Origin: Tautonia plasticadhaerens
GTDB lineage: Bacteria > Planctomycetota > Planctomycetia > Isosphaerales > Isosphaeraceae
Assembly (NCBI RefSeq): GCF_007752535.1
Contig: NZ_CP036426.1
Coordinates: 3,596,001 to 3,660,000, forward strand
Reading direction: 5' to 3'
Length of the DNA stretch: 64,000 bases
A program made the position numbers and the translations under genes. Every line of letters starts with the position of its first letter. Position 1 is the first letter of the stretch. The notes below the pieces were generated by a model that saw only the letters and a list, made by a program, of their open reading frames with translations, was not told the origin of the DNA and made no database searches. Of the stretch, positions 29,384-42,335 are shown one piece after another.

Positions 29384-30400
29384 TCAGCCTCCCACGACGA
29401 GGGCCGACGACCGGATCAGGTCCAGCGCCCTCATCTGGGCCAGGCCGTCCTCGGCGGGGAGATCGAGCGAGCCGGAGGAGACGGCCCGGGCGAAGGCGTC
29501 GACCATCCGGGCGTACTGGTCGGCGCCGTCGAAGGAGAGGGACTCGGGGCCGGCCCCCTCGACGTCGGCGTCGGGGCCGCCGTCGGCCGCGAATCGGAGG
29601 GCGGTCGGCCGGGCGGGGGGGAGGTAGGCGTCGGGCACCCGGATCGAGCCGGAGGTGCCGACCAGCTCGTATTCGCAGCGGAAGGGGGCCTCGAAGCTGC
29701 AATCGACCAGGCCGATGACGCCGCCGGGGAAGGCCAGCTCGGCGGTGAGCGTCAGCTCCACGCCCGAGGGGTGCGGGCGCTGCATCGCCCGGACGGCGAC
29801 CGGCTCGGCCCCGGCGAACAGCCGGCAGGTGTTCACCCCGTAGCAGCCGACGTCCCAGAGGGCGCCTCCCCCCCGGGCCGGGTCCAGCCGCCAGTCCCCC
29901 GGGTCGATCGGGAAGGAGAACGACGAGCGGACCAGCCGGAGCGTCCCGAGCCCCCCCGAGCGGACGAGTCCCAGCAGCTCGGCCGTCCGGGGCTGGTGCC
30001 GCCACATGAAGGCTTCCATCAGGAGGACGCCCCGCGATCGGCAATGGTCGACCATCTCGGCGGCCTCCCGGGCGTCCAGCGCCAGGGGCTTCTCGCAGAG
30101 GACGTGCTTGCCGGCCTCGGCGGCGGCGAGGACCCAGGGGCGGTGCAGCTCGTTGGGCAGGGGGATGTAGACGGCGTCGACCTCCGGGTCGTCGAGCACG
30201 GCCCGGTAGTCGCCGTACGCCCTGGCGGCCCCGAACTCCCCGGCCCAGGCCGTCGCCGTCTCCCCGTCCCGGCTGGCCAGGGCGTGCAAGGTGCCCGACT
30301 CCGAGGCGAGGATCCCGGGCGCCAGGCCCCTCCGGGTGATCCGGGCACAACCGAGGATGCCCCAGCGGATCGGTCGGGGCGGGGGGGCGGACGAGGGCAT
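29384..30400 (-). CDS. Gfo/Idh/MocA family NAD(P)-dependent oxidoreductase
   Basis: 338 residues. An N-terminal Rossmann fold starts at IRWGILGCARITRRGLAPGI. The signature CEKPLAL (about 102-108) contributes the catalytic Lys and nucleotide contacts. The C-terminal alpha/beta domain has GGGALWDVGCYGVNTCRLFA, where the D-x-G-x-Y segment is the usual substrate-binding part. Substrates in this family are sugars, inositols or related polyols; the specific one cannot be read here. The protein has no export signal from this start. The longer upstream frame (to about 30802) adds an unlikely Pro/Arg-rich leader and was rejected. It is divergent from the DUF1080 gene. Confidence 0.9.
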   Translation of the reverse strand: MPSSAPPPRPIRWGILGCARITRRGLAPGILASESGTLHALASRDGETATAWAGEFGAARAYGDYRAVLDDPEVDAVYIPLPNELHRPWVLAAAEAGKHVLCEKPLALDAREAAEMVDHCRSRGVLLMEAFMWRHQPRTAELLGLVRSGGLGTLRLVRSSFSFPIDPGDWRLDPARGGGALWDVGCYGVNTCRLFAGAEPVAVRAMQRPHPSGVELTLTAELAFPGGVIGLVDCSFEAPFRCEYELVGTSGSIRVPDAYLPPARPTALRFAADGGPDADVEGAGPESLSFDGADQYARMVDAFARAVSSGSLDLPAEDGLAQMRALDLIRSSALVVGG

Positions 30401-30800
30401 GGGGGCGGGCTCCGGGGTGGTGCGTCGGGGATCCTGGATCCTGAAGATCCCGAGGTTAGCCCATCGAGCGGCCGGACGCGACGGGACGGCCCCGCGGGTC
30501 GCACCGGGGGGGAGGGCGGAGGCCCCTGCCGAAATGCCGGGGCGTCTCCGGGACCGGCCTCGATCATCGATGTCCCGACATCTGTCATTCGATCTCCGAG
30601 AGCCGGCCGGAGCCGGGCCCTCGCCCCGTCCCCGGCGGGCGGCCCTCGACGCGTCGCCGACCGCTGCCGCCTTGCCCGGCCCCGGAGGTGTGGTCATGAT
30701 GCGAAGGATGGGCGGGGCGCGGCGACCGGGGGCCCGGCCGGATCGGATCGGCCGGGGACGGGCGTCGGGCCGACCGGCCCGAAGGGAGACTGATCGCACC
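30401..30800. other. Divergent intergenic region
   Basis: 400 bp between the oxidoreductase and DUF1080 starts. It contains a short dyad GATGTC-CC-GACATC (30569-30582) that could be an operator. Nothing else is recognisable. Confidence 0.4.
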
Positions 30801-31490
30801 ATGACGACGCTTCATACGAGGATCCTCCGGGGCTCGATCGCCCTCGGGCTGGGCGTGGCGGCCGCCTCGCTGACGGCGGCGGGCCCGGTGCAGGGAGACG
30901 GGGCGGAGGCGATCTTCGACGGCTCCGGCCCCGAGGGCTGGGTCAACAACAACGACCTCGCGCCGATCCCGACGTCGGCCGTCCAGGAGGACGGGCTGAA
31001 CCCCCACGGCACCGGCGCCTACGTCGTGCTCTACGAGCAGAAGGTCAAGGACTTCGTGCTCGACTTCGACTACAAGCTCTCCCCCGGCTGCAACTCCGGC
31101 GTCTTCATCCGGGTCGGCGACCCGAAGGACCCGGTGATGACCGGCCTGGAGGTGGCCCTCGACGACACGACCGGGACCGGCTATCACGACTCGGGGGCCT
31201 TCTACGACCTGGTCGAGCCCGAGGCCAACGCCCAGGAGCCCGCCGGCGAGTGGAACCACATGACGATCATTGCCGAGGGGCCGATCGTCACCGTCTCGAT
31301 CAACGGCACGCAGGTCAGCCGGATCGACCAGTCCCAGTTCACCGAGCCCGGCAAGCGCCCCGACGGCTCCGACCACAAGTTCCGCCGGGTCGCCATCGCC
31401 GACCTCGTCCAGGAGGGCTACTTCGGCTTCCAGGACCACGGTTCTAACGTGTGGTACAAGAACGTCCGCCTCAAGAGGAGCCCCGGCTAG
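30801..31490 (+). CDS. Secreted DUF1080 (3-keto-disaccharide hydrolase-like) protein
   Basis: 229 residues with an N-terminal signal peptide (about 1-32). A single jelly-roll DUF1080 domain shows AIFDGSGPEGW, DFVLDFDYKLSPGCNSGVFI (the strongly conserved SGVFIR region), GEWNHMTIIAEGPIVTVSIN and the closing GYFGFQDHGSNVWYKNVRLK. The fold is concanavalin-like. Some members are 3-keto-glycoside hydrolases or lyases, which fits the divergent Gfo/Idh/MocA oxidoreductase: the two types often work together on glycoside oxidation. The last 20 codons have a decayed counterpart at 33467-33526, beyond an inserted ATPase gene. Confidence 0.88.
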   Translation: MTTLHTRILRGSIALGLGVAAASLTAAGPVQGDGAEAIFDGSGPEGWVNNNDLAPIPTSAVQEDGLNPHGTGAYVVLYEQKVKDFVLDFDYKLSPGCNSGVFIRVGDPKDPVMTGLEVALDDTTGTGYHDSGAFYDLVEPEANAQEPAGEWNHMTIIAEGPIVTVSINGTQVSRIDQSQFTEPGKRPDGSDHKFRRVAIADLVQEGYFGFQDHGSNVWYKNVRLKRSPG

Positions 31491-31797
31491 CCTCCAGGTC
31501 GTCGAGTTCTTCCGGGGCGGAGCGTAGATCGGCCTAACGCCCCTACTGCTCAACGCCGCTCAATTCCTCTGCCGATGAAGGGATTATCCAGACGTCCTAA
31601 TTGACACTTCGAGTCCGCCGAACAAGTACTACTTTTACGGCTGTCGTATGGCGGCAGCAAATGCGTGCCCGTCAGATGGGAGGGGGAATCGAGCCTAGCA
31701 TTGTTCGGCCGAACGTCTCTCATGTGGCTGAAGTGCCGGACTTCAGGCGGGTCGTGAGGCTGAGTCCCAGCCGTAACTCGATCTCCAGGAGTGACTG
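31491..31797 (+). other. AT-richer region between DUF1080 and the inserted ATPase gene
   Basis: 307 bp with lower GC than the flanks, apparently the left part of an inserted segment. A perfect TTGACA occurs at 31601-31606, but no good -10 lies 16-18 bp behind it. AGGAG lies 7-11 bp before the ATPase ATG. No ORF of interest was found. Confidence 0.45.
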
Positions 31798-33450
31798 ATG
31801 GTCCCAGCGAGGCCGAGTGGTAGTTTCAAATTCAGGAAGAACTCGACCATCGGGGCGGCAGCAGCAGAGAACGACCGTCATTTCCTGGAAAATTGCTACA
31901 TCGACACCGGAGACCTCGATGTTCTGACCGACCAGACGATAGCGAAGTGCATCGTGGTCGGGAGGACCGGTTCGGGGAAGACGGCACTGCTGCTACGACT
32001 CAAGGAGACGCAACCGAACGTCATCGAATTTTCGCCCTTCAACTTGACCGTCGAGTTTGTCAGCAACTCCCAAGTGATCCGCCTCTTCACCGAGGCCGGG
32101 GTCAATATGGACCCCTTCTACAAACTCCTCTGGCGACACGTCTTCACGGTCGAACTGATCAAGAAAATCCACGGCATCACGGATCGGAGGAGCCAGGGTG
32201 TTTTCTTCGATCTAATGAAGAAGACATGGAGCGATGAGAAGAAGGAGCAGTATGACTTTCTCCTCAAGCACGGCGACTCGTTCTGGAAAGAAGCCGACGA
32301 GAGGGTGAAGGAGACAACGAAAAAGACAGAGACAGAACTTAAGGCAGCCCTCGGGGGAATATTGGGATCGGCCATCGACATCGGAGCGTCGAGGCGATGG
32401 ACTGATGAACAGAAGGCCGAGATCCGTGCACAAGGACAAGAGGTCGTCAGCAGGACCAAACTCAAAGACCTGAATAGGATGTTCGACCTCATCAAGATGG
32501 AGTTGGCCGAGGCTGCCAAGTATACCTACTTCATCGTAATCGACGACCTCGATCAGCAATGGGCCGACGACAGCATCAGATACAAACTGATCTACGCACT
32601 GATCGAGACGATGCAGGAATTTCATCACAAAGTAAAAAATGTTAAAATTGCGATATGCTTGCGAACAGACCTGATAGAGAGGATCATCAAGCAGATCAAG
32701 GGGGCCGGCTATCAGGAGGAAAAAATCCGGTCGCTCTTTCTTGATTTGACGTGGACAGGTGATCAACTTACAGAGATGCTGGACGCCAGGATCAACCAAC
32801 TCGTCCGGGACAGTTATACGCTCGCCACGATCACGCACCGGGAATTACTTCCTAAGCTCAGCAGGAAGGTAAACGACAACGCCGCACTGGAATATATGAT
32901 CGAGCGAACGCTTATGCGTCCGAGGGACTTGATCACCTTCTTCAACTTTTGCATTGGTTATGCTGTAGGTAGACCGGACATAACGAAGACAATGTTGCTT
33001 GGTGCTGAGGGTGATTACTCGAAAGATCGCCGAAGGTCGTTGGAGCAAGAGTGGAAGGCCGATTATCCAGACCTCAAGGAGTTCATTGACCTGTTCAAAA
33101 AACGGCCTCCCCAGTTCCGCCTTGGTGAATTGACCAAGGACGATCTGGACGATTTTGTGGTCAAATACACCACCCAGCGTACTCATCCAGAAGGGGGACT
33201 CGGGCACTTAGCCTACCAGTACTACAACGAAGTGATCGGGGACTCGGTGTTCCGTATTTCTATGGTATCGATACTCTATTCAATCGGGTTTCTTGGCATC
33301 AAAACCGACTCTTATACGAGCATGCAGTATGTCGGGCTCGGACAGGGATCGCTCGACAAGGAAGATATAAGCGATGACAGTTTGTGCGCTGTCCACAAAA
33401 TGTACTGGAGGTCTCTTGGTATCCACGATCGTGGAGGAGATAGGCGATAG
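31798..33450 (+). CDS. P-loop ATPase resembling the Sll1717 family
   Basis: 550 residues, cytosolic. The opening FRKNSTIGAAAAENDRHFLE, then TGDLDVL and CIVVGRTGSGKTALL (Walker A, 55-62), is the pattern I recall for Sll1717-type P-loop ATPases. Walker B is FIVIDDLDQQW (about 243-254), and ICLRTDLIERII is a sensor-like strand. The C-terminal half is helical with MRPRDLITFFNFC, as in STAND-related AAA proteins that choose between partners. No membrane segment is seen. Codon use is much less GC-biased than in all neighbours (for instance the A/T-rich stretch near 32628-32650), a sign of transfer. It stands alone, between a DUF1080 gene and a decayed DUF1080 tail. The family is of unproven function; a defence or stress role is inference. 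Confidence 0.75.
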   Translation: MVPARPSGSFKFRKNSTIGAAAAENDRHFLENCYIDTGDLDVLTDQTIAKCIVVGRTGSGKTALLLRLKETQPNVIEFSPFNLTVEFVSNSQVIRLFTEAGVNMDPFYKLLWRHVFTVELIKKIHGITDRRSQGVFFDLMKKTWSDEKKEQYDFLLKHGDSFWKEADERVKETTKKTETELKAALGGILGSAIDIGASRRWTDEQKAEIRAQGQEVVSRTKLKDLNRMFDLIKMELAEAAKYTYFIVIDDLDQQWADDSIRYKLIYALIETMQEFHHKVKNVKIAICLRTDLIERIIKQIKGAGYQEEKIRSLFLDLTWTGDQLTEMLDARINQLVRDSYTLATITHRELLPKLSRKVNDNAALEYMIERTLMRPRDLITFFNFCIGYAVGRPDITKTMLLGAEGDYSKDRRRSLEQEWKADYPDLKEFIDLFKKRPPQFRLGELTKDDLDDFVVKYTTQRTHPEGGLGHLAYQYYNEVIGDSVFRISMVSILYSIGFLGIKTDSYTSMQYVGLGQGSLDKEDISDDSLCAVHKMYWRSLGIHDRGGDRR

Positions 33451-33466
33451 GGCGAAACTACCGTCT

Positions 33467-33526
33467 CAGGACCACGGCTAGGACTGCTGGTACCAGGACG
33501 TGAGACTCAAGATCCTGGGGGACTGA
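33467..33526 (+). pseudogene. Decayed 3' end of a DUF1080 gene
   Basis: Twenty codons that align without gaps to the last 20 codons of the DUF1080 gene at 31431-31490. They read QDHG-stop-DCWYQDVRLKILGD against QDHGSNVWYKNVRLKRSPG, with about 33 of the first 45 bases identical. An in-frame TAG at the fifth codon and the lack of anything upstream make it a remnant. It marks the right side of the segment carrying the P-loop ATPase. Confidence 0.7.
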
Positions 33527-33733
33527 CCGGGATCGGGCCCGGGTCGAGTCCGGTCGGGTCGAGGCTCGGGAGGCCGTCGGGGCCCCCCGGGGGTGGACCG
33601 TGGCGTAGAATCCCTGGGTGATCGGCGGCGGCGGCGAGGCGATCGGGTCGGTTGCGAGTCCGGGGGGTCCCGGGCCATCCCGCTCGACGCCCGGGTTCCC
33701 CATCGTGGCGGTGCGGAGCGGAGCGGGATCGGG

Positions 33734-34442
<709 letters not shown>

Positions 34443-34456
<14 letters not shown>

Positions 34457-35612
34457 CATCGACCCGCACGCCGGGGAGGTCGTCTCGCGCCTCAGGCGGG
34501 ACGTGATCGACCCGCTCAAGCGCCGGTTCGTCGGCCGGGACGAGGTGGTGGACCTCATCGCCCTGGCCGTCGTCTCGGGGGAGCACCTGTTCCTGCTCGG
34601 CCCGCCGGGCACGGCCAAGTCGGCCGTGATCCGGGGCTTCGCCGAGGCGGTGCAGGGCCGCTACTTCGAGTACCTGCTCACCCGGTTCAGCGAGCCGAAC
34701 GAGCTGTTCGGGCCCATCGACCTCGTCCGACTCCGGGAGGGGGCCGTGGCCACCGTGACCACCGGCATGCTGCCCGAGGCGGAGTTCGCCTTCCTCGACG
34801 AGCTGTTCAACGCCAACAGCGCCATCCTGAACAACCTGCTCACCGTGCTCAACGAGCGGGTCTACCGGCGGGGGGCCGAGGCCCACCGCCTCCCCCTGCT
34901 CTCGCTCTTCACCGCCTCCAACCACCTGGCCGAGGACGAGGCGCTGCGGGCCCTGTTCGACCGGTTCCTGATCCGCTGCCATGTCGACAACTTGAAGCGA
35001 GACGCCATGCCCCGGCTCCTCGCCGCCGGCTGGGAGCTGGAGCGGGCCGGGCCGTCGTCGGCGGGCGTGTCGGCCGGGGACCTCAGGGCGCTGTCGCGCC
35101 GGGTCTTCGACGTGGACCTCTCGGCCGTCTCCGGCCCGTACGCCGAGCTGGTCTGGAAGGTCCGGGACCTGGGGGTCGCGCTCTCGGATCGGCGGGCCGT
35201 GAAGGTGCTGAAGCTGGTGGCCGCCTCGGCGCTGCTGAGCGGCCGGGCCGGGGCGAGGCCGTCGGACCTCTGGGTGCTGCGCTACGTCTGGGACCGCGAG
35301 GAGCAGATCGACCCGCTCCGGTCGCTGGTCGGCGCCGTGCTCGACCGGGCCGCCGACGACGACCCCGACGCCCCCCGCCACCCGCTGGCCGAGCCCCCCG
35401 ACCGCGTCGACGCCGAGGACCTCGCCCGCCAGCTCGACCAGGCCGAGGCCCAGCTCCGGGCCCCCGACGGCCGGCCGCTCGGCCTCGCCGCCGCCGCCCG
35501 ACTCCGGGAACGCCTGGCCGAGCTGTCCGACCGGGCCGCCTGGGTGGGCGACGACGCGGCCCGGCGGCACCTGATGGGCCGGGTGTCGGAGCTGACGGGG
35601 CGGTTGACGTGA
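34443..35612 (+). CDS. MoxR-type AAA+ ATPase
   Basis: 389 residues. Walker A is GPPGTAKS (53-60), Walker B FAFLDE (115-120), and sensor 1 TASN (157-160). The MoxR-typical stretch FSEPNELFGPIDL precedes Walker B, and LFNANSAILNNLLTVLNER follows it. The C-terminal lid runs about 210-300, then a helical extension rich in Asp/Arg. These ATPases act as chaperones that remodel a vWA-domain partner. The start is GTG at 34443: GGGGAGG (34431-34437) lies 5 bp upstream and the start overlaps the previous gene. ATG at 34410 is in frame but sits in the Gly-Ser repeat and has no ribosome site. Confidence 0.88.
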
Positions 35613-35648
35613 GGCGGGGCGGGGCGGGATCCAGGCACTGGAGGGCGG

Positions 35649-36515
35649 ATGGCGCCCGGCACCCGGGTTGACGTTATTACGATGATCCCCCCCCCGAACT
35701 CCCCCGCCCCCCTCTCCGGCGTCCGCCTCGCCCGCGTGCCGATCGCGGGCCTGGCGGCGTTGGCGGCGCTGCGGGGGAGGGGGGACGTGACGGTCCTCGC
35801 CGCCGAGGGGGGCGAGGACGCCTGGGTGTCGTGGCGGCCGGGACCAGGGGGGGACCGCGACGAGGTCGTCGAGGCGCTGCTGCCCGTGCCGGGGGCGGCC
35901 TTCTTCCGCGGCGATCGGGGGGGCTGGTATCGCGTCGGCCGGAGCCTGCCGGACTTCGACGCCGGGCCGGCGCCCGAGGGGGACCACGCCGGCCCCCCCG
36001 GCCTGCCGCTGCACCGCGCCCTCCTGCCGGGGCCGACCCGATGGCTCGACCCCCGGGCCGACTGGAGGCCCGCGACCCTGCGGCTGGCGGCCGACCACCG
36101 GCCGAGGCCGGCGTCGGCGCTGGTGATCCGGGCCGGGGCGCTGCTGCCCTGGGCCGAGTCGGCGCCGACGGCGAGCCTCCGGGGGCTGGCCGCGGCGAGG
36201 TCGGGGGACCGGGTCCTGCTGCTCGGCCGGCGATTGCCGCCGGTCCTCGGCCTCGGCCGGTACTGGGGCGGCCGGGTGCTCGTGCCGCTCGGCTCCAGGC
36301 CCGAGCCGGATCTGCCCGAGGCGAGGATGGCCGAGGCGCTCGGCCTGCCCGACGGGGACCTCGGCCTGATCGGCCCTGACGGTCGCGTCGAGGTCGTCCC
36401 CGGCCGGGCGCCCCGGCCGCTCTCCCGGGCGTCGGCCCGGCTCATGGCCGGCATCTCGGATCGGCTCCCGGGGGGGCAGGGCCCGGGCTCGGGGCCGAGG
36501 GAGGGGGGGCGATGA
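35649..36515 (+). CDS. MoxR-operon accessory protein (bpX-type system), function unknown
   Basis: 288 residues, no membrane segment or catalytic motif. Beta-strand-rich sequence such as GDVTVLAAEGGEDAWVSWRP and RVLLLGRRLPPVLGLGRYWG reads like a degenerate propeller or a binding domain. The C-terminal part ends in a Gly-rich tail. GGAGGG lies just ahead of ATG 35649; the in-frame ATG at 35682 has no ribosome binding site. The stop overlaps the start of the vWA/propeller gene (ATGA). The gene is therefore translationally coupled to it and very likely belongs to the same complex. Confidence 0.65.
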   Translation: MAPGTRVDVITMIPPPNSPAPLSGVRLARVPIAGLAALAALRGRGDVTVLAAEGGEDAWVSWRPGPGGDRDEVVEALLPVPGAAFFRGDRGGWYRVGRSLPDFDAGPAPEGDHAGPPGLPLHRALLPGPTRWLDPRADWRPATLRLAADHRPRPASALVIRAGALLPWAESAPTASLRGLAAARSGDRVLLLGRRLPPVLGLGRYWGGRVLVPLGSRPEPDLPEARMAEALGLPDGDLGLIGPDGRVEVVPGRAPRPLSRASARLMAGISDRLPGGQGPGSGPREGGR

Positions 36516-39379
36516 TCGCCGCGGACTCGTATCTGCACATCCCCGAGGCGTACGGCCGGTGGCTCGGCGGCCTGAAATGGTCCGTCGGCGGCGAGGCGGT
36601 GGAGTTCCCCGACGGCCAGACCTTCGCCTTCGGGCGGGAGCTGTCGCTGTTCCTCGACGGCTTCGCCGCCGGCCGGGAGCCGATCCACTTCGCCCACGTC
36701 CTGCACCTGGTCCACCTGCTGCTCCGGGGCCCGCTGAGCCACGACGTGGTGACCCCGATGGATCTGGCCGGCAGCTTCGTCGCCCTCGGCCGGCCGCATC
36801 GCAACGCCGGGGCCTTCTGCGCGACGCTCTGCGACGGCGTCCCCGGGCTGCCCGACCCGCCCGACGTGGAGGCCGTCTGCCTGCTGCTCACCGCCGGGGC
36901 GGCCGTGGGCGGCTACCGCCGGGCCGAGGTCGAGGCCGACCTCGTCCTCTGGGAGGGCTACGACCCGGGCGACCCGGGACACGGGCCGGCCGCCGCCCTC
37001 GCCGTCGACGACCCGCCGATGTCGCCCGCCGTGTTCGAGCGGCTGGTGCTCGAACGCCTCGCCCGCCACCGCCCCGATCAGGTCCGCCACTGGCTCCGCC
37101 TGGGCCGCCCCCCGGAGCCCTCGGGCCGCTCGGTGGCCGACCGGGTCGAGGCCGAGCTGCCGGGCACCGTCCGGGAGGCGCTCGAGCCCCTGCTGCGTCG
37201 CCCCCGGCTCTCCGGCTCGGCCGGCCTGCTCGACCGCCTCGTCGGCGCCCTGGCGCTGCCCCCCCGCACCCTGGCCCGGGAGTCGTTGCCGACGGGCGGC
37301 TATGCCGACGTCTCCAACCGGGGCCACCCCGAGCGCCTGCTCCCCGGCCAGCACGCCATGGAGCCCGAGGAGTTCCTCCGCCGCTTCGCCGAGAACGAAT
37401 TGCTCTACTACCAGCGGGAGGAGCCCCACGCCCCCGAGTCCGAGGAGCTGGTCGTCCTGATCGACCAGGGCGTCCGCACCTGGGGGGCCGTCCGCCCCGT
37501 GCTCGCGGCGGCGGCCGTCGCCCTGGGGCGCCTGGCCGACCGCCGGGGGGCGGCGATGCGGCTCGGCTCGACGGTCGACCCGACCCGCCTGCTCGACCCC
37601 CTGGCCAGCCCCGCAGACGCCCTCGCCGCCCTGCTCGAGGCCAGCGATTTGAGCCCCCACCCGGCCCCGATGCTGGCCTCGGCGCTGGCGGGGGGCTCGC
37701 CCCGGCGCCGGGACGTGGTGCTGCTGACCCACCCGAGGTCCCTGGACGAGCCCGAGGTGGAGGCCGCCGCGCGTCGGGTCGGCCCGGGGGACCGGCTGTT
37801 CGCCGTGGCGGTCGACGACCGCCGGGACGTGCAGCTCTCCGAGGTCCGCCGGGGCCGCCCCGTCCCCCTCGCCCGGTTCCGGGCCGAGCCGGCCGACGAC
37901 CACCCCGCCGCCCCCCGCCCGGCCCGGCCCGGCCGGGGGGGGGCGGGGGCGTGGGAGGGGGACGTGGAGCCGATCGGCTTCCCCTTCCGCCTCGCCCCCG
38001 GCGTCGGCCCGACGCCCCGGGGGATCGGGCCGACGTTCGCCTTCACCGAGTCGGGCGAGTGGCTGGCGGCGATCGGGCCGCACGGCGTGCCGCTCGCCTG
38101 GCGGGTGGACGGGTCGTCGGTCGAGGCCTGGCCCCGCGGCCTCTCGGGGGGCGAGGTCGTGCGGACGGTCGACGCCCTGCTCGGGGTGGCCGGCGGGTTC
38201 GTGGTCATCGGTCGGCTCGGCGACGGAGACGGAGACGGCGATCGGCCGGTCGCGGTGCATTACGACCTCGCCCCCCGCCGGGTCCGCTCCTACGTGAAAT
38301 ACCTCTCCGCCGAGCCGGTCTGGGACTGGTTCTACCTCCGGGAGTCGCACGCCCTGATCGCCCGGGGGCCGGAGGAGAGCTGGTACGTCGACCTCCGCAC
38401 GGGGGGCCGGTTCTCGTCGCAAGACCGCTGCTCCTCCGAAATCGTCGCCCGGGATCTGGCCCGGGTCGAGGGGGCTTCCGTCCCCCCCCCCGGACTGCTT
38501 GTGCTGCACGACGACGACACCCGGCCCGCCTCCGGCCCCTCGGCCCGCCTGAGGGTGGGGACCGGCACGGTGACGCTCGACGGCGTCTCCCCCCCCTGGC
38601 GCCCCTTCCGGCCGTTCGCCGACGGCCTGCCGCTGCTGGCCGGGCGACGGCTGGAGCGGGCCCTCCTCCGCGGCGACACGCTGGCCCTGTACGCCTCCGG
38701 GGGCGGCCGCCCCCCCCGCTGGCATGTGTTCCAGGGGCCCGATCCGGTCCTGCTGCCCGATCGCCCGGCCCCGGGCGCGGGGGATCTTACGCTCTCCGCG
38801 GACGGACGGCTCATGGCGGTACGCCAGGACGACCATCGCTACGCCGTATCCGTTGTCGATTCCGCCGGCCCCCCCGCGCTGCTCACCCCCCGGGCCGGTG
38901 CCTCGGGCTGGCCCCACGTCGGCCTCGGCCGGGACTGGATGGCGCTGCAGGACGGGCCCCACGCCACCCTCCTACGCTGGGACGGGGGCCGGCTGGAGGT
39001 CCGCTCCGCCTCGGGGGACCGGGCGTATGCCTATTCCGCCCTCTTCCACGAGGGGGTCCCCGCCTCCCCGCTGGTCTCCGTCGCCCGCCGGGGGTCGCTG
39101 CCCGCCTGGGCCTCGTACGACCCCCGGCGGTTCAAGGCCACCTGCCGGGGCCCGGGGCTGGTCGCCGTGGTCGACGACTTCGGCCAGGTCGCCCTCTCGG
39201 ATTCGGGCGGCACGCTCCTGTGCATCGTCCTCGCCTCCCGGGGCCGCCTCGCCGCCTGGATGCCCGACGGCACCCGCTTCGGCCCCGCCGAGCTGACCGG
39301 CTCTCCCCCCACCCCCGGGGCCGGGGAGCGGATCGCCGCGGCCCTGAGGGGGGCGGCGCGGGGGGGGTTAGCGGGGTGA
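36512..39379 (+). CDS. Large vWA-like and beta-propeller protein of the MoxR system
   Basis: 955 residues. The first 300 are helical (YGRWLGGLKWSVGGEAVEFP, then HFAHVLHLVHLLLRGPLS). A vWA-like domain follows at about 310-470, beginning ELVVLIDQGVRTWGAVRPVL. The first MIDAS residues are D-Q-G rather than D-x-S-x-S, so metal binding may be lost. From about 500 to 955 the sequence repeats beta-blade-like units (FAFTESGEWLAAIGPHGVPL, LTLSADGRLMAVRQDDHRYA, GPGLVAVVDDFGQVALSD), a probable beta-propeller. Within the MoxR-vWA-propeller scheme the ATPase would act on the vWA part and the propeller would recognise target or signal. It overlaps the previous gene by 4 bp. Confidence 0.78.
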   Translation: MIAADSYLHIPEAYGRWLGGLKWSVGGEAVEFPDGQTFAFGRELSLFLDGFAAGREPIHFAHVLHLVHLLLRGPLSHDVVTPMDLAGSFVALGRPHRNAGAFCATLCDGVPGLPDPPDVEAVCLLLTAGAAVGGYRRAEVEADLVLWEGYDPGDPGHGPAAALAVDDPPMSPAVFERLVLERLARHRPDQVRHWLRLGRPPEPSGRSVADRVEAELPGTVREALEPLLRRPRLSGSAGLLDRLVGALALPPRTLARESLPTGGYADVSNRGHPERLLPGQHAMEPEEFLRRFAENELLYYQREEPHAPESEELVVLIDQGVRTWGAVRPVLAAAAVALGRLADRRGAAMRLGSTVDPTRLLDPLASPADALAALLEASDLSPHPAPMLASALAGGSPRRRDVVLLTHPRSLDEPEVEAAARRVGPGDRLFAVAVDDRRDVQLSEVRRGRPVPLARFRAEPADDHPAAPRPARPGRGGAGAWEGDVEPIGFPFRLAPGVGPTPRGIGPTFAFTESGEWLAAIGPHGVPLAWRVDGSSVEAWPRGLSGGEVVRTVDALLGVAGGFVVIGRLGDGDGDGDRPVAVHYDLAPRRVRSYVKYLSAEPVWDWFYLRESHALIARGPEESWYVDLRTGGRFSSQDRCSSEIVARDLARVEGASVPPPGLLVLHDDDTRPASGPSARLRVGTGTVTLDGVSPPWRPFRPFADGLPLLAGRRLERALLRGDTLALYASGGGRPPRWHVFQGPDPVLLPDRPAPGAGDLTLSADGRLMAVRQDDHRYAVSVVDSAGPPALLTPRAGASGWPHVGLGRDWMALQDGPHATLLRWDGGRLEVRSASGDRAYAYSALFHEGVPASPLVSVARRGSLPAWASYDPRRFKATCRGPGLVAVVDDFGQVALSDSGGTLLCIVLASRGRLAAWMPDGTRFGPAELTGSPPTPGAGERIAAALRGAARGGLAG

Positions 39380-39501
39380 TTGCCGGCGGCGACGGGACGA
39401 CTCGCGGACCTCGGGAACGAACGGCTATCGTAGGGAGGTGATCGGATCGGCCGCCCTCCCCCGGCCCACCGCCATCCGCCGACGTGAAGGACCCCGCACC
39501 G

Positions 39502-39720
39502 ATGTCCCCCCCCGCATTGCCCCTCCGCCTGCCGCTCTCACCCCGACGCCGGACCGAGCCGGCGCCGGCCGAGGCGTTCCTGCTGCCGGGAGGGGACGGG
39601 GGGGCGGCCCTGGCGATCGTGGCCGGGCAGGGGGGGGAGGCCCGGATCTTCGAGGTGTCGGGCGGCCTGCTGGTGGTGCTCGGGGGGGGGGGACGGCCCG
39701 GCCGTCGGCCGCCTCGGTGA
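39502..39720 (+). CDS. N-terminal piece of the last MoxR-operon protein, cut off after a run of 11 G
   Basis: 72 residues beginning MSPPALPLRLPLSPRRR and continuing as a folded-looking segment (LLPGGDGGAALAIVAGQGGE, then ARIFEVSGGLLVVLGGGG). Just after the tract G11 at 39682-39692 the frame changes into Arg/Pro-rich sequence and stops at 39718-39720. One extra G (or two fewer) in the tract would join this piece directly to the next ORF, which begins with matching beta-strand sequence. Either the tract is misread or mutated, or this is a real short gene coupled through the GTGA overlap. I favour a broken N-terminus. Confidence 0.5.
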   Translation: MSPPALPLRLPLSPRRRTEPAPAEAFLLPGGDGGAALAIVAGQGGEARIFEVSGGLLVVLGGGGRPGRRPPR

Positions 39721-42335
39721 CGACGGCCGCCTTGGCGCCGGGGACGATCCGCCTCCGGAGGCTCGGGCGGGGCCTGTTCGTGCCGGTCGATGCCGACCTC
39801 GTCCCCGCGCTGCTGGAAGACGAGGTCGAGGGGCTGACCCGGGGCCGGGGCCTGGTCTTCCTGCCGGGCGGGACGGCCCTGAGGTTCGACCCGGACCGGC
39901 CGCTGCCGACGTCCCGGCTGCTGGGGGTCGACCGCGCCGACGGCCTCCCCGGCTGGGAGTCCCCCCCGGAAGGGCCGACCCGGGCCGATCGGCTCGTCGA
40001 GGTCTCCCTGGATCTGCCGGGGGACGACGCCGAGGCCCGCCTCGGGGCCGGCGGCGACGACATCGCCACCGAGGAGACCCGGCCCGAGGACACCGGCGCC
40101 CCCCGCCGGGCCCTCGGCGGCGCGGCGATGGGGGCGGGGCGGGGGATGATGTGGCTCGGCCGGACGCTGGGGATGTCCGGCCTCTCGGGGATGGGGGCGC
40201 GCTGGATCGGCTCGGCGATGGAGCTGGCCCCCCGGCTCGGCGAGGCCCTGCTCGGCAAGCAGGAGGGGGCGCTGCGCGACCTGCTCCGCGAGTTCCGGGA
40301 GGGGGACGTCGAGCGGGCCCTCCGACGGGCCCTGCCCCTGGGCAAGGGGAACGAGCGGGGGGCCTCGGCCGCCGGGTCGGCCGACCTGCCCGAGCGCGAC
40401 CCCAGCTACTCCTTGCCCGACATCCTCGGCCCGCCCGGCGTCGGCCGGGGCGGCGGCGCCGGCTACTGGTTCGGCGGCTTCGACGTGCAGCAGGAGCTGA
40501 TCCGGGAGTACCACCGGGCCGCCCAGGCCGCCGCCCGACGCGGCGACTACCGCCGGGCCGCCTTCATCTACGCCCGGCTGCTGGAGGACTATCGCCTCGC
40601 CGCCGGCGTGCTGCTCCAGGGCGGGCTGGCCCGGGACGCCGCGTTGATCTACCTGGAGAAGCTGGACGACCGCCCCGCCGCCGCCCGGGCCTTCGAGGCC
40701 GCCGGGGAGTTCGACCGCGCCCTGGCCCTCTACCGGGGGCTCGACGACTTCGAGCGCGCCGGGGACCTGCTCGCCCGGCTCGGCGAGCCCGAGGAGGCGC
40801 TGGAGGCCTACCTCCGGGCCGCCGACCGGATCGTCGACCTCGAGGGGGACCACCTCAAGGCCGGGGAACTGCTCCGCTCCCGGGCCTCCCGCCCCGACCT
40901 GGCCTCCCGGTTCTTCGCCGACGGCTGGGCGGCCCGCCCCGGTCCCAACGCCGTCTCCTGCGCCGTCGAGCTGGCCCGGTCGTGGGCCGACTCGGGGGAG
41001 GCCGCCCCGCTCCGCTCGCTCGTCGCCGAGGCCGACGAGCTGCTCGGCCCCCCGGGGCACGAGGCCGACGCCTCCCGGTTCTACAACGAGCTGGCCCGCC
41101 TGGCCGACCTGCCGGGCCTGGCCCCCTGCCGGGTCGAATTGCGGGACCGGGCCCTGATCGGCCTGGCCGGGAAGCTCCGGCAGCGGGCCGGGCCGGGGGC
41201 GTCGGCCCCGCCGGGGCTGGCCTCCTCCCTGTTCGGCCCGGCCCGGGAGTGGTCGGCGGACCTGATCCGGGACGCCGAGTACGCCCTGCGGGCCTCCGCC
41301 CGGCCCCGGGCCGTCGGGGAGCCCCGCCCGGCCTCCCCCCCGCCGCGGGCGACCACCTCCCGGCTCGTCGACGGGCCGGTCACGGCCGTCGCCTTCGCCC
41401 GGGGGGCTGGCCTGGCGTTCCTCGGCACCCGGTCCGGGGACGTGTACCGGCTCGACCCGGCCCGGGGCGAGGCCGAGCGCCTGGGCCGCTACGCGATGCC
41501 GGTCTGCTCCCTGGCGGTCGACGAGGCCGGGGGTGCGCTCTCGGTGCTCTGGCACGACCCCGAGTCCGGCCGGACGGTCCTCGCCTCCTACGCCCGACGG
41601 CCGGACGGCTCCTACCGGATGACCGAGGGCCGCGCCGTCACCGCCCGGTCGGCCGGGGATCGCCCCTTCCTCGCCCCCCCCGCGCCGGGGATGGCCGGGG
41701 AGGTTGCCCTCTGGGACGGCCGCAGCTACGTCCTGCTCCGGGGGGCCTCGCTCACGCCCTGGGGGGAGATCCCCCGGGGGGCCGACGAGGACGGCGGGCC
41801 GCCCCCCGCCTCGGTCCTCCTGCCGATGGGCCCGGCGCCCTCGGCGACCCTGCTGGAGCTGGGCCCCCCCCGCTCCTGGGCCTGGCTCGCCCCGGACCTC
41901 GGCCCGGTCGACCGCCTGGCGGTCCCCTGGTCCCCCCGGCCGCCGATCGAGGCGGCCGGGGCCTCGCCGTCGCTCTCCTGGATCCGGGAGGACCCCGGGA
42001 GGCTGATCCTGGCCGGCCTCGGCGACGGCGGCGTGCTGCACCAGACGACCCTCTCGCTCCGCCGGGACCCGATCGCCGTCGAGGGCAACGCCTCCTGGTC
42101 CTCCCCCGAGGCGATCTTCCGGGCCGCCTGCCTCGTCCGCCCCGGGCTGCTGGCCGGCGTCGGGGCCGACGCCGTCCACTGGCTCCGGGCCGAGCCCGGC
42201 CGCCTCGCCCGGCGCTCGACGACTGGCATCGCCCTCGGCAGCACCCTGGCCGCCGTCCCCAGCCCGAAGACGGGTGAACTCGTGCTCATCGGGGCCGACG
42301 GCCGGGCCGAGCGCCTCCCGCTGCCGTATCCCTGA
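39717..42335 (+). CDS. Solenoid plus beta-propeller protein of the MoxR system (bpX-like)
   Basis: 873 residues from GTG 39717, which overlaps the preceding stop as GTGA. A 5' extension is probably encoded at 39502-39716 in another frame. The order is: a beta-rich N-terminal region (IRLRRLGRGLFVPVDADLVP); a Gly/Met-rich segment (about 125-185); a TPR-like helical solenoid (about 256-400: YHRAAQAAARRGDYRRAAFI, then AFEAAGEFDRALALYRGLDD, then LLARLGEPEEALEAYLRAAD); and a C-terminal propeller (about 545-873: VTAVAFARGAGLAFLGTRSG, VCSLAVDEAGGALSVLW). No signal peptide or membrane span is seen. It closes the operon. The domain make-up matches propeller subunits of MoxR-vWA-propeller ternary systems. 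Confidence 0.72.
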   Translation: MTTAALAPGTIRLRRLGRGLFVPVDADLVPALLEDEVEGLTRGRGLVFLPGGTALRFDPDRPLPTSRLLGVDRADGLPGWESPPEGPTRADRLVEVSLDLPGDDAEARLGAGGDDIATEETRPEDTGAPRRALGGAAMGAGRGMMWLGRTLGMSGLSGMGARWIGSAMELAPRLGEALLGKQEGALRDLLREFREGDVERALRRALPLGKGNERGASAAGSADLPERDPSYSLPDILGPPGVGRGGGAGYWFGGFDVQQELIREYHRAAQAAARRGDYRRAAFIYARLLEDYRLAAGVLLQGGLARDAALIYLEKLDDRPAAARAFEAAGEFDRALALYRGLDDFERAGDLLARLGEPEEALEAYLRAADRIVDLEGDHLKAGELLRSRASRPDLASRFFADGWAARPGPNAVSCAVELARSWADSGEAAPLRSLVAEADELLGPPGHEADASRFYNELARLADLPGLAPCRVELRDRALIGLAGKLRQRAGPGASAPPGLASSLFGPAREWSADLIRDAEYALRASARPRAVGEPRPASPPPRATTSRLVDGPVTAVAFARGAGLAFLGTRSGDVYRLDPARGEAERLGRYAMPVCSLAVDEAGGALSVLWHDPESGRTVLASYARRPDGSYRMTEGRAVTARSAGDRPFLAPPAPGMAGEVALWDGRSYVLLRGASLTPWGEIPRGADEDGGPPPASVLLPMGPAPSATLLELGPPRSWAWLAPDLGPVDRLAVPWSPRPPIEAAGASPSLSWIREDPGRLILAGLGDGGVLHQTTLSLRRDPIAVEGNASWSSPEAIFRAACLVRPGLLAGVGADAVHWLRAEPGRLARRSTTGIALGSTLAAVPSPKTGELVLIGADGRAERLPLPYP

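What the first reader, a model, noticed from the sequence alone, without database searches (positions are those of the whole stretch)
31431..33526. Low-GC P-loop ATPase inserted at the end of a DUF1080 gene, leaving a decayed copy of the gene end
The last 20 codons of the DUF1080 gene (31431-31490) are echoed without gaps by 33467-33526 on the other side of the ATPase gene, with an internal stop. The DNA between has clearly lower GC and different codon use. The inserted cargo is one STAND-like ATPase resembling the Sll1717 family, a plausible defence gene. Either a paralogous DUF1080 was destroyed by the insertion, or the mobile segment brought a replacement gene end, as elements that target 3' ends of genes often do.
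Basis: partly seen in the sequence, partly recalled or inferred. Interest (0 to 1): 0.72.

Follow-up and report, generated by a model that had tools for sequence, protein, structure and literature searches.

The report
Foreign ATPase gene with borrowed gene-end scrap
A planctomycete has picked up a foreign, probably phage-defence-related ATPase gene between two old neighbouring genes, and a 20-codon scrap of a related gene's end lies directly behind it; this is a clear but fairly ordinary case of lateral gene gain.

Summary
31431-31490 and 33467-33526 share 37 of 60 bases, the best ungapped match in the window, and the second copy reads as a DUF1080 end with one internal stop. The gene between has GC 0.51 against 0.72 for the window, and GC3 0.67 against 0.97 for the DUF1080 gene.

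Three of three genus-mates keep DUF1080 next to bpX4 and lack the ATPase, so it is an insertion. The visible DUF1080 gene is intact, and its stop and next 68 bases align with the Tautonia sociabilis ortholog (score 26; null maximum 19 of 400). So the insert did not bring a replacement gene end. The scrap is the odd piece: it is closer to orthologs of other Isosphaeraceae genera (up to 40 of 45) than to any Tautonia tail (34 of 45 at most). It probably arrived with the ATPase, or is the stump of a lost second copy.

The ATPase is in the NCBIfam Sll1717 family, which is sporadic in this class; relatives are cargo on plasmids and proviruses. Its fold is weakly like BrxC, RdrA and Cdc6/Orc. The next operon is a predicted MoxR-vWA-beta-propeller conflict system. 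A new member of a known kind.

The parts
29384..30436 (-). Gfo/Idh/MocA oxidoreductase, left neighbour kept in Tautonia sociabilis
   Evidence: Pfam PF01408/PF22725 on the ORF 29384-30802; 80% identical in L108 in the same arrangement
30801..31490 (+). DUF1080 (3-keto-disaccharide hydrolase) gene, intact with its native stop
   Evidence: Pfam PF06439 E 7e-40; 79%, 71% and 69% identical in the three genus-mates
31491..31558 (+). native sequence after the DUF1080 stop, shared with Tautonia sociabilis
   Evidence: anchored alignment score 26, null maximum 19 of 400
31559..33466 (.). inserted low-GC segment (left edge inferred from the end of similarity and the GC drop; right edge is where DUF1080 homology starts)
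   Evidence: absent from 3 of 3 genus-mates
31798..33450 (+). P-loop ATPase, Sll1717 family, 550 aa
   Evidence: NCBIfam NF047389 229 bits, cut-off 75, E 1.2e-67
33467..33526 (+). 20-codon DUF1080 3' end scrap with an internal TAG at 33479-33481
   Evidence: 37 of 60 to 31431-31490; profile E 1.1e-4; 40 of 45 to the tail in G021
33749..34456 (+). bpX4, first gene of a MoxR-vWA-beta-propeller ternary (predicted conflict) operon
   Evidence: Pfam PF19920 E 1.8e-44
34356..35612 (+). bpMoxR ATPase with the P-loop GPPGTAKS (context)
   Evidence: Pfam PF20030 E 4.9e-91; P-loop variant as described in PMC7159879 section 22
35649..36515 (+). bpX2 (context)
   Evidence: Pfam PF19918 E 4.5e-36
36512..39379 (+). 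bpX0/bpX1 protein (context)
   Evidence: Pfam PF19915 and PF19917 above cut-off
39438..42335 (+). bpX3 protein (context)
   Evidence: Pfam PF19919 E 9.8e-14

Best explanation
About 1.9-2.0 kb of foreign DNA carrying one Sll1717-family P-loop ATPase entered the variable gap between an intact DUF1080 gene and a beta-propeller ternary conflict operon, among the four Tautonia genomes held only in this one. The DUF1080 gene was not touched. The 20-codon scrap at the right edge is a truncated 3' end of another Isosphaeraceae member's ortholog of the same DUF1080 gene. It most likely arrived joined to the ATPase and has since gained a stop. The ATPase most likely serves as a single-gene anti-phage or superinfection-exclusion factor: a nucleotide-switch ATPase that senses an invader and acts through oligomerisation or a partner. 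Shown here: insertion, empty sites, native gene end, scrap identity. Inferred: import of the scrap with the ATPase, the joining mechanism, and defence function.
For: Empty site: DUF1080 and bpX4/bpMoxR are neighbours in all three genus-mates (gaps 1,256, 924 and 960 bases) without the ATPase. Patchiness: ATPase hits in 4 of 59 relatives including the own genome and 4 of 392 phylum genomes at 1e-10 including the own genome. Composition: GC 0.512 and GC3 0.666 against 0.97. Native gene end. The scrap is closer to other genera (40, 38, 38, 38 and 38 of 45 for the best five rows, two of which look like the same genome) than to the four Tautonia tails (34, 33, 33, 32). The second Tautonia paralog tails score 29 and 28. 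Apart from the stop the scrap reads like a working ortholog end, so decay looks recent (my reading). Mobility of the family: 175 plasmid records, 3 IMG/VR contigs with the gene beside a terminase or a phage DNA methyltransferase in two of them, and a P27 terminase small subunit beside the G272 copy. Distant link to the anti-phage protein DS41_1 (34.5 bits).
Against: The scrap is only 60 bases, so its placement among genera is weak, and shared high GC could raise identity. No genome was found where the ATPase precedes a DUF1080 end: none of the other ATPase loci examined has a DUF1080 match, and no DNA match to 31491-33640 exists in 391 other phylum genomes. Low GC alone is weak: in this family the gene is poorer in GC than its flanks in 18 of 19 measurable loci, own included. 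DS41_1 is far below its cut-off of 370 bits, so defence function is not established.
Confidence: 0.5

Rival explanations
1. The scrap is the stump of a second, tandem DUF1080 gene (an old out-paralog of the first) that stood before bpX4 in this lineage and was mostly deleted when the ATPase inserted.
For: The scrap lies in the right place and orientation for a tandem copy; it kept functional-looking codons until recently; the DNA after it is host-like in GC (0.775).
Against: 0 of 40 ortholog loci show a second DUF1080 in the flanks; none of the three genus-mates has a remnant in the gap; it needs a copy older than the genus, lost in three other species.
Confidence: 0.33
2. A site-specific element integrated at the QDHG codons, supplied a new DUF1080 end (the present one) and pushed the original end (the scrap) to its far side.
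For: Homology of the scrap starts exactly at an 11-base identity with the gene; the scrap keeps the conserved Cys and the Leu near the end, while the present tail RSPG is unusual.
Against: The present stop and 68 bases beyond are shared with Tautonia sociabilis (score 26, null maximum 19 of 400) and the bases after the scrap are not (score 3). The 11-mer is present in about half of ortholog tails. No integrase in the insert.
Confidence: 0.1
3. The ATPase is ancestral in the genus and was lost in the three relatives.
For: Only four genomes of the genus are held.
Against: Patchy occurrence in the family and phylum, foreign codon use, three losses needed or two if G002 and G003 share one.
Confidence: 0.05

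Closest known systems
NCBIfam NF047389, P-loop ATPase Sll1717 family
   Same: Full-length match of the 550-aa protein, 229 bits against a cut-off of 75
   Different: Nothing found that sets it apart; function of the family is not described in the held papers (one search found no paper with the term Sll1717)
DS41_1 anti-phage protein (NF053860; I take it to be DS-41 of DefensePredictor, PMC13092281, by name)
   Same: Weak match over residues 22-383, E 1.1e-8; DS-41 is among the 42 validated transcription units (passages and section 5 read)
   Different: 34.5 bits against a cut-off of 370, so not a member
BrxC (BREX) and RdrA (RADAR) ATPases
   Same: Among the best Foldseek matches to the predicted model (BrxC E 1.6e-4; RdrA E 2e-3)
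   Different: TM-scores 0.2-0.35, about 10-12% identity, no partner genes in the insert
MoxR-vWA-beta-propeller ternary conflict systems (PMC7159879, eLife 2020)
   Same: The operon to the right has bpX4, bpMoxR with the GXXXTAKS-type P-loop, bpX2, bpX0/bpX1 and bpX3
   Different: It is the neighbour, not the inserted gene; bpX4 and bpMoxR are present in the genus-mates without the ATPase

Membership tests
NF047389 ATPase_Sll1717 | whole-protein score above the curated cut-off (75 bits) | tested here: met
   229 bits, residues 18-540 on model 1-454
NF047389 ATPase_Sll1717 | Walker A (GRTGxGK) and Walker B acidic residues conserved | tested here: met
   G55 R56 T57 G58 G60 K61 and I248 D249 L251 D252 invariant in six members
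DS41_1 anti-phage protein (NF053860) | score above the curated cut-off (370 bits) | tested here: not met
   34.5 bits
STAND NTPases | match to a STAND/NACHT profile over cut-off | tested here: inconclusive
   Own protein: AAA_16 25.4 bits below 32.6 and no nSTAND match; the relative in G272 matches nSTAND1 just over cut-off, 27.5 against 27.1
Anti-phage defence gene | protects cells from phage in an assay | not testable with these tools
Site-specific element that targets a gene's 3' end | integrase gene and a replaced gene end | tested here: not met
   no integrase ORF in the insert; present gene end is native
DUF1080 / PF06439 (the scrap) | match to the C-terminal part of an ortholog profile | tested here: met
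   E 1.1e-4 in six frames of the whole window

The most novel reading that the evidence does not exclude
The DUF1080 gene end acts as a shared recombination handle in Isosphaeraceae: defence cargo such as this ATPase is passed between genera together with a piece of that gene end, which helps it land beside the same gene in a new host and next to a ternary conflict operon.
Probability: 0.08. Interest if true: 0.55.

Novelty: new member of a known kind. Interest (0 to 1): 0.25.

Why it matters
It gives a clean example of a lone, probably defence-related ATPase entering a planctomycete chromosome, with an empty site in three relatives and a scrap of gene that may reveal the donor family. It also places an accessory ATPase directly beside a predicted beta-propeller ternary conflict operon, which could be tested for cooperation. 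It does not change any general view.

Tried and rejected
Replacement gene end: rejected because the present stop and downstream bases are shared with Tautonia sociabilis. att-like 11-mer core: rejected, since 14 of 29 pattern-matched tails have it, one row being a chance match. Source within the own genome: 28 DUF1080 matches; by the QDHG pattern, the best own-genome tail other than the gene scores 26 against 76-81 for the best orthologs. Tails without that pattern were not scored there. The second Tautonia paralog as source: rejected, 29 and 28 of 45. Old insertion before the split from T. sociabilis: considered; no remnant in its gap and too little decay of the scrap. RNA families or tRNA at the junctions: none. 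Promoter and terminator scans gave nothing above chance worth using. Genome-contig scan with the ATPase found no relative. No DNA relative of the insert in plasmids or 391 other phylum genomes. Solved structures by sequence: no meaningful hit. Phage records: 3 weak hits. Other DUF1080-flanked inserts: among 36 DUF1080 loci with a full 1.5-kb flank none shows a comparable GC drop, and among 36 ATPase-bearing loci (several are the same place held twice) only the own one has a DUF1080 match. Pfam on frames of the gap of T. sociabilis found nothing. In one search a tblastn at E 10 without composition correction gave many low-complexity hits for the neighbouring genes; these were ignored, and the ATPase had only two chance hits. 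In the tail tables loci whose ends lacked the QDHG pattern were not scored, and some rows are one genome held in two collections (for example L112 and L089). A family missing from the VIA-align list is not read as excluded. Papers: PMC13092281 abstract, passages and section 5 read; PMC7159879 passages and section 22 read; others seen only in search listings.

Full report
What is there. The window lies in a 9.4-Mb genome (G000) whose closest held relatives form one genus. One relative's contig of 72,752 bases matches a Tautonia sociabilis record, so the genus is Tautonia. The order is Gfo/Idh (minus), DUF1080, ATPase, DUF1080 scrap, then bpX4, bpMoxR, bpX2, bpX0/bpX1 and bpX3.

The echo is real. 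31431-31490 and 33467-33526 agree at 37 of 60 positions; the next best ungapped match in the window is 33 of 60, on the minus strand. A profile of nine orthologs finds only the gene and this scrap in six frames of the window. The scrap reads QDHG*DCWYQDVRLKILGD*; orthologs commonly have Gln at the stop position. Convincing homology starts at base 33467 and not before.

The ATPase is an insertion. Genus-mates G001, G002 and G003 all have DUF1080 followed by bpX4 and bpMoxR, and T. sociabilis (G001) also keeps Gfo/Idh on the left. None has the ATPase. Their gaps measure 1,256, 924 and 960 bases. Two of the gaps hold a small DUF326 gene and the third holds nothing recognisable. The gap is therefore variable. 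The ATPase gene has GC 0.512 and GC3 0.666, against 0.97 GC3 for the DUF1080 gene. One caution: in 18 of 19 measurable family loci, own included, the gene is poorer in GC than its flanks, so low GC is partly a family trait; the own difference (0.20) is the largest.

The DUF1080 gene end is native. From the stop codon onward, 68 bases align in register with the T. sociabilis ortholog with score 26; 400 random stretches of the same contig gave at most 19. The bases after the scrap score 3 against the same target. An unanchored local test over the whole gap was not significant (59 of 200 shuffles reached the score), while for the first 70 bases 1 of 200 did; so the signal rests on the anchored test and on those first bases.

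Where the scrap comes from. It is not from another DUF1080 of this genome, as far as tails with the QDHG pattern show (28 matches; tails). Over 45 bases it matches G021 of another genus at 40, the next four rows at 38 (two of these rows look like one genome), and the Tautonia tails at 34, 33, 33 and 32. Tautonia tails in contrast pair with each other (38 and 39). As a caution, 24 of 385 between-genus pairs reach 40 or more, some of them the same genome held twice. The second DUF1080 group of Tautonia scores 29 and 28. None of 40 ortholog loci has a second DUF1080 in its flanks. I therefore favour arrival with the ATPase from another Isosphaeraceae lineage, but 60 bases cannot settle this against an old tandem copy.

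What the ATPase is. It belongs to NCBIfam NF047389 (229 bits, cut-off 75). A profile search finds 51 of 397 class genomes over the cut-off, some only by adding up partial matches in one frame. At the level of this protein, 4 of 392 phylum genomes match at 1e-10, own included. Relatives occur on 175 plasmid records and in 3 IMG/VR contigs, beside a terminase or a phage DNA methyltransferase in two of these. The copy in G272 lies beside a P27 terminase small subunit. The anti-phage protein DS41_1 is a distant relative only (34.5 bits against 370). A predicted model of moderate confidence (mean pLDDT 67) is closest by Foldseek to BrxC and RdrA. In the structural second look Cdc6/Orc, TnsC, MuB, RdrA, BrxC and CED-4 types lie close together. 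A defence role is thus plausible and untested.

Context. The operon to the right is a MoxR-vWA-beta-propeller ternary system, described as a predicted conflict system in PMC7159879 (section 22). None of 11 other bpX4 loci, the three genus-mates among them, has an ATPase of this family in the flanks held, so among these the pairing is found in this genome alone.

Verdict.

Noticed in passing
window 33749-42335: Complete-looking beta-propeller MoxR-vWA ternary conflict operon (bpX4, bpMoxR, bpX2, bpX0/bpX1, bpX3); bpX4 and bpMoxR stand at the same place in the three genus-mates
   Followed up: partly
L052:2529-2849 (+) and L053:1088-1582 (-): In two genus-mates the same gap holds a small Cys-rich DUF326 gene instead of the ATPase
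   Followed up: partly
L100:94-1218 and L101:9045-9584: The nearest relative of the ATPase (G049) is split over two contig ends, perhaps broken by a repeat or insertion sequence
   Followed up: no
L189:3980-5617: A lone family ATPase lies between terminase genes and replication-type genes of an IMG/VR contig, as cargo
   Followed up: partly
window 31476-31490: The present DUF1080 tail RSPG lacks the Leu that most orthologs keep near the end
   Followed up: no
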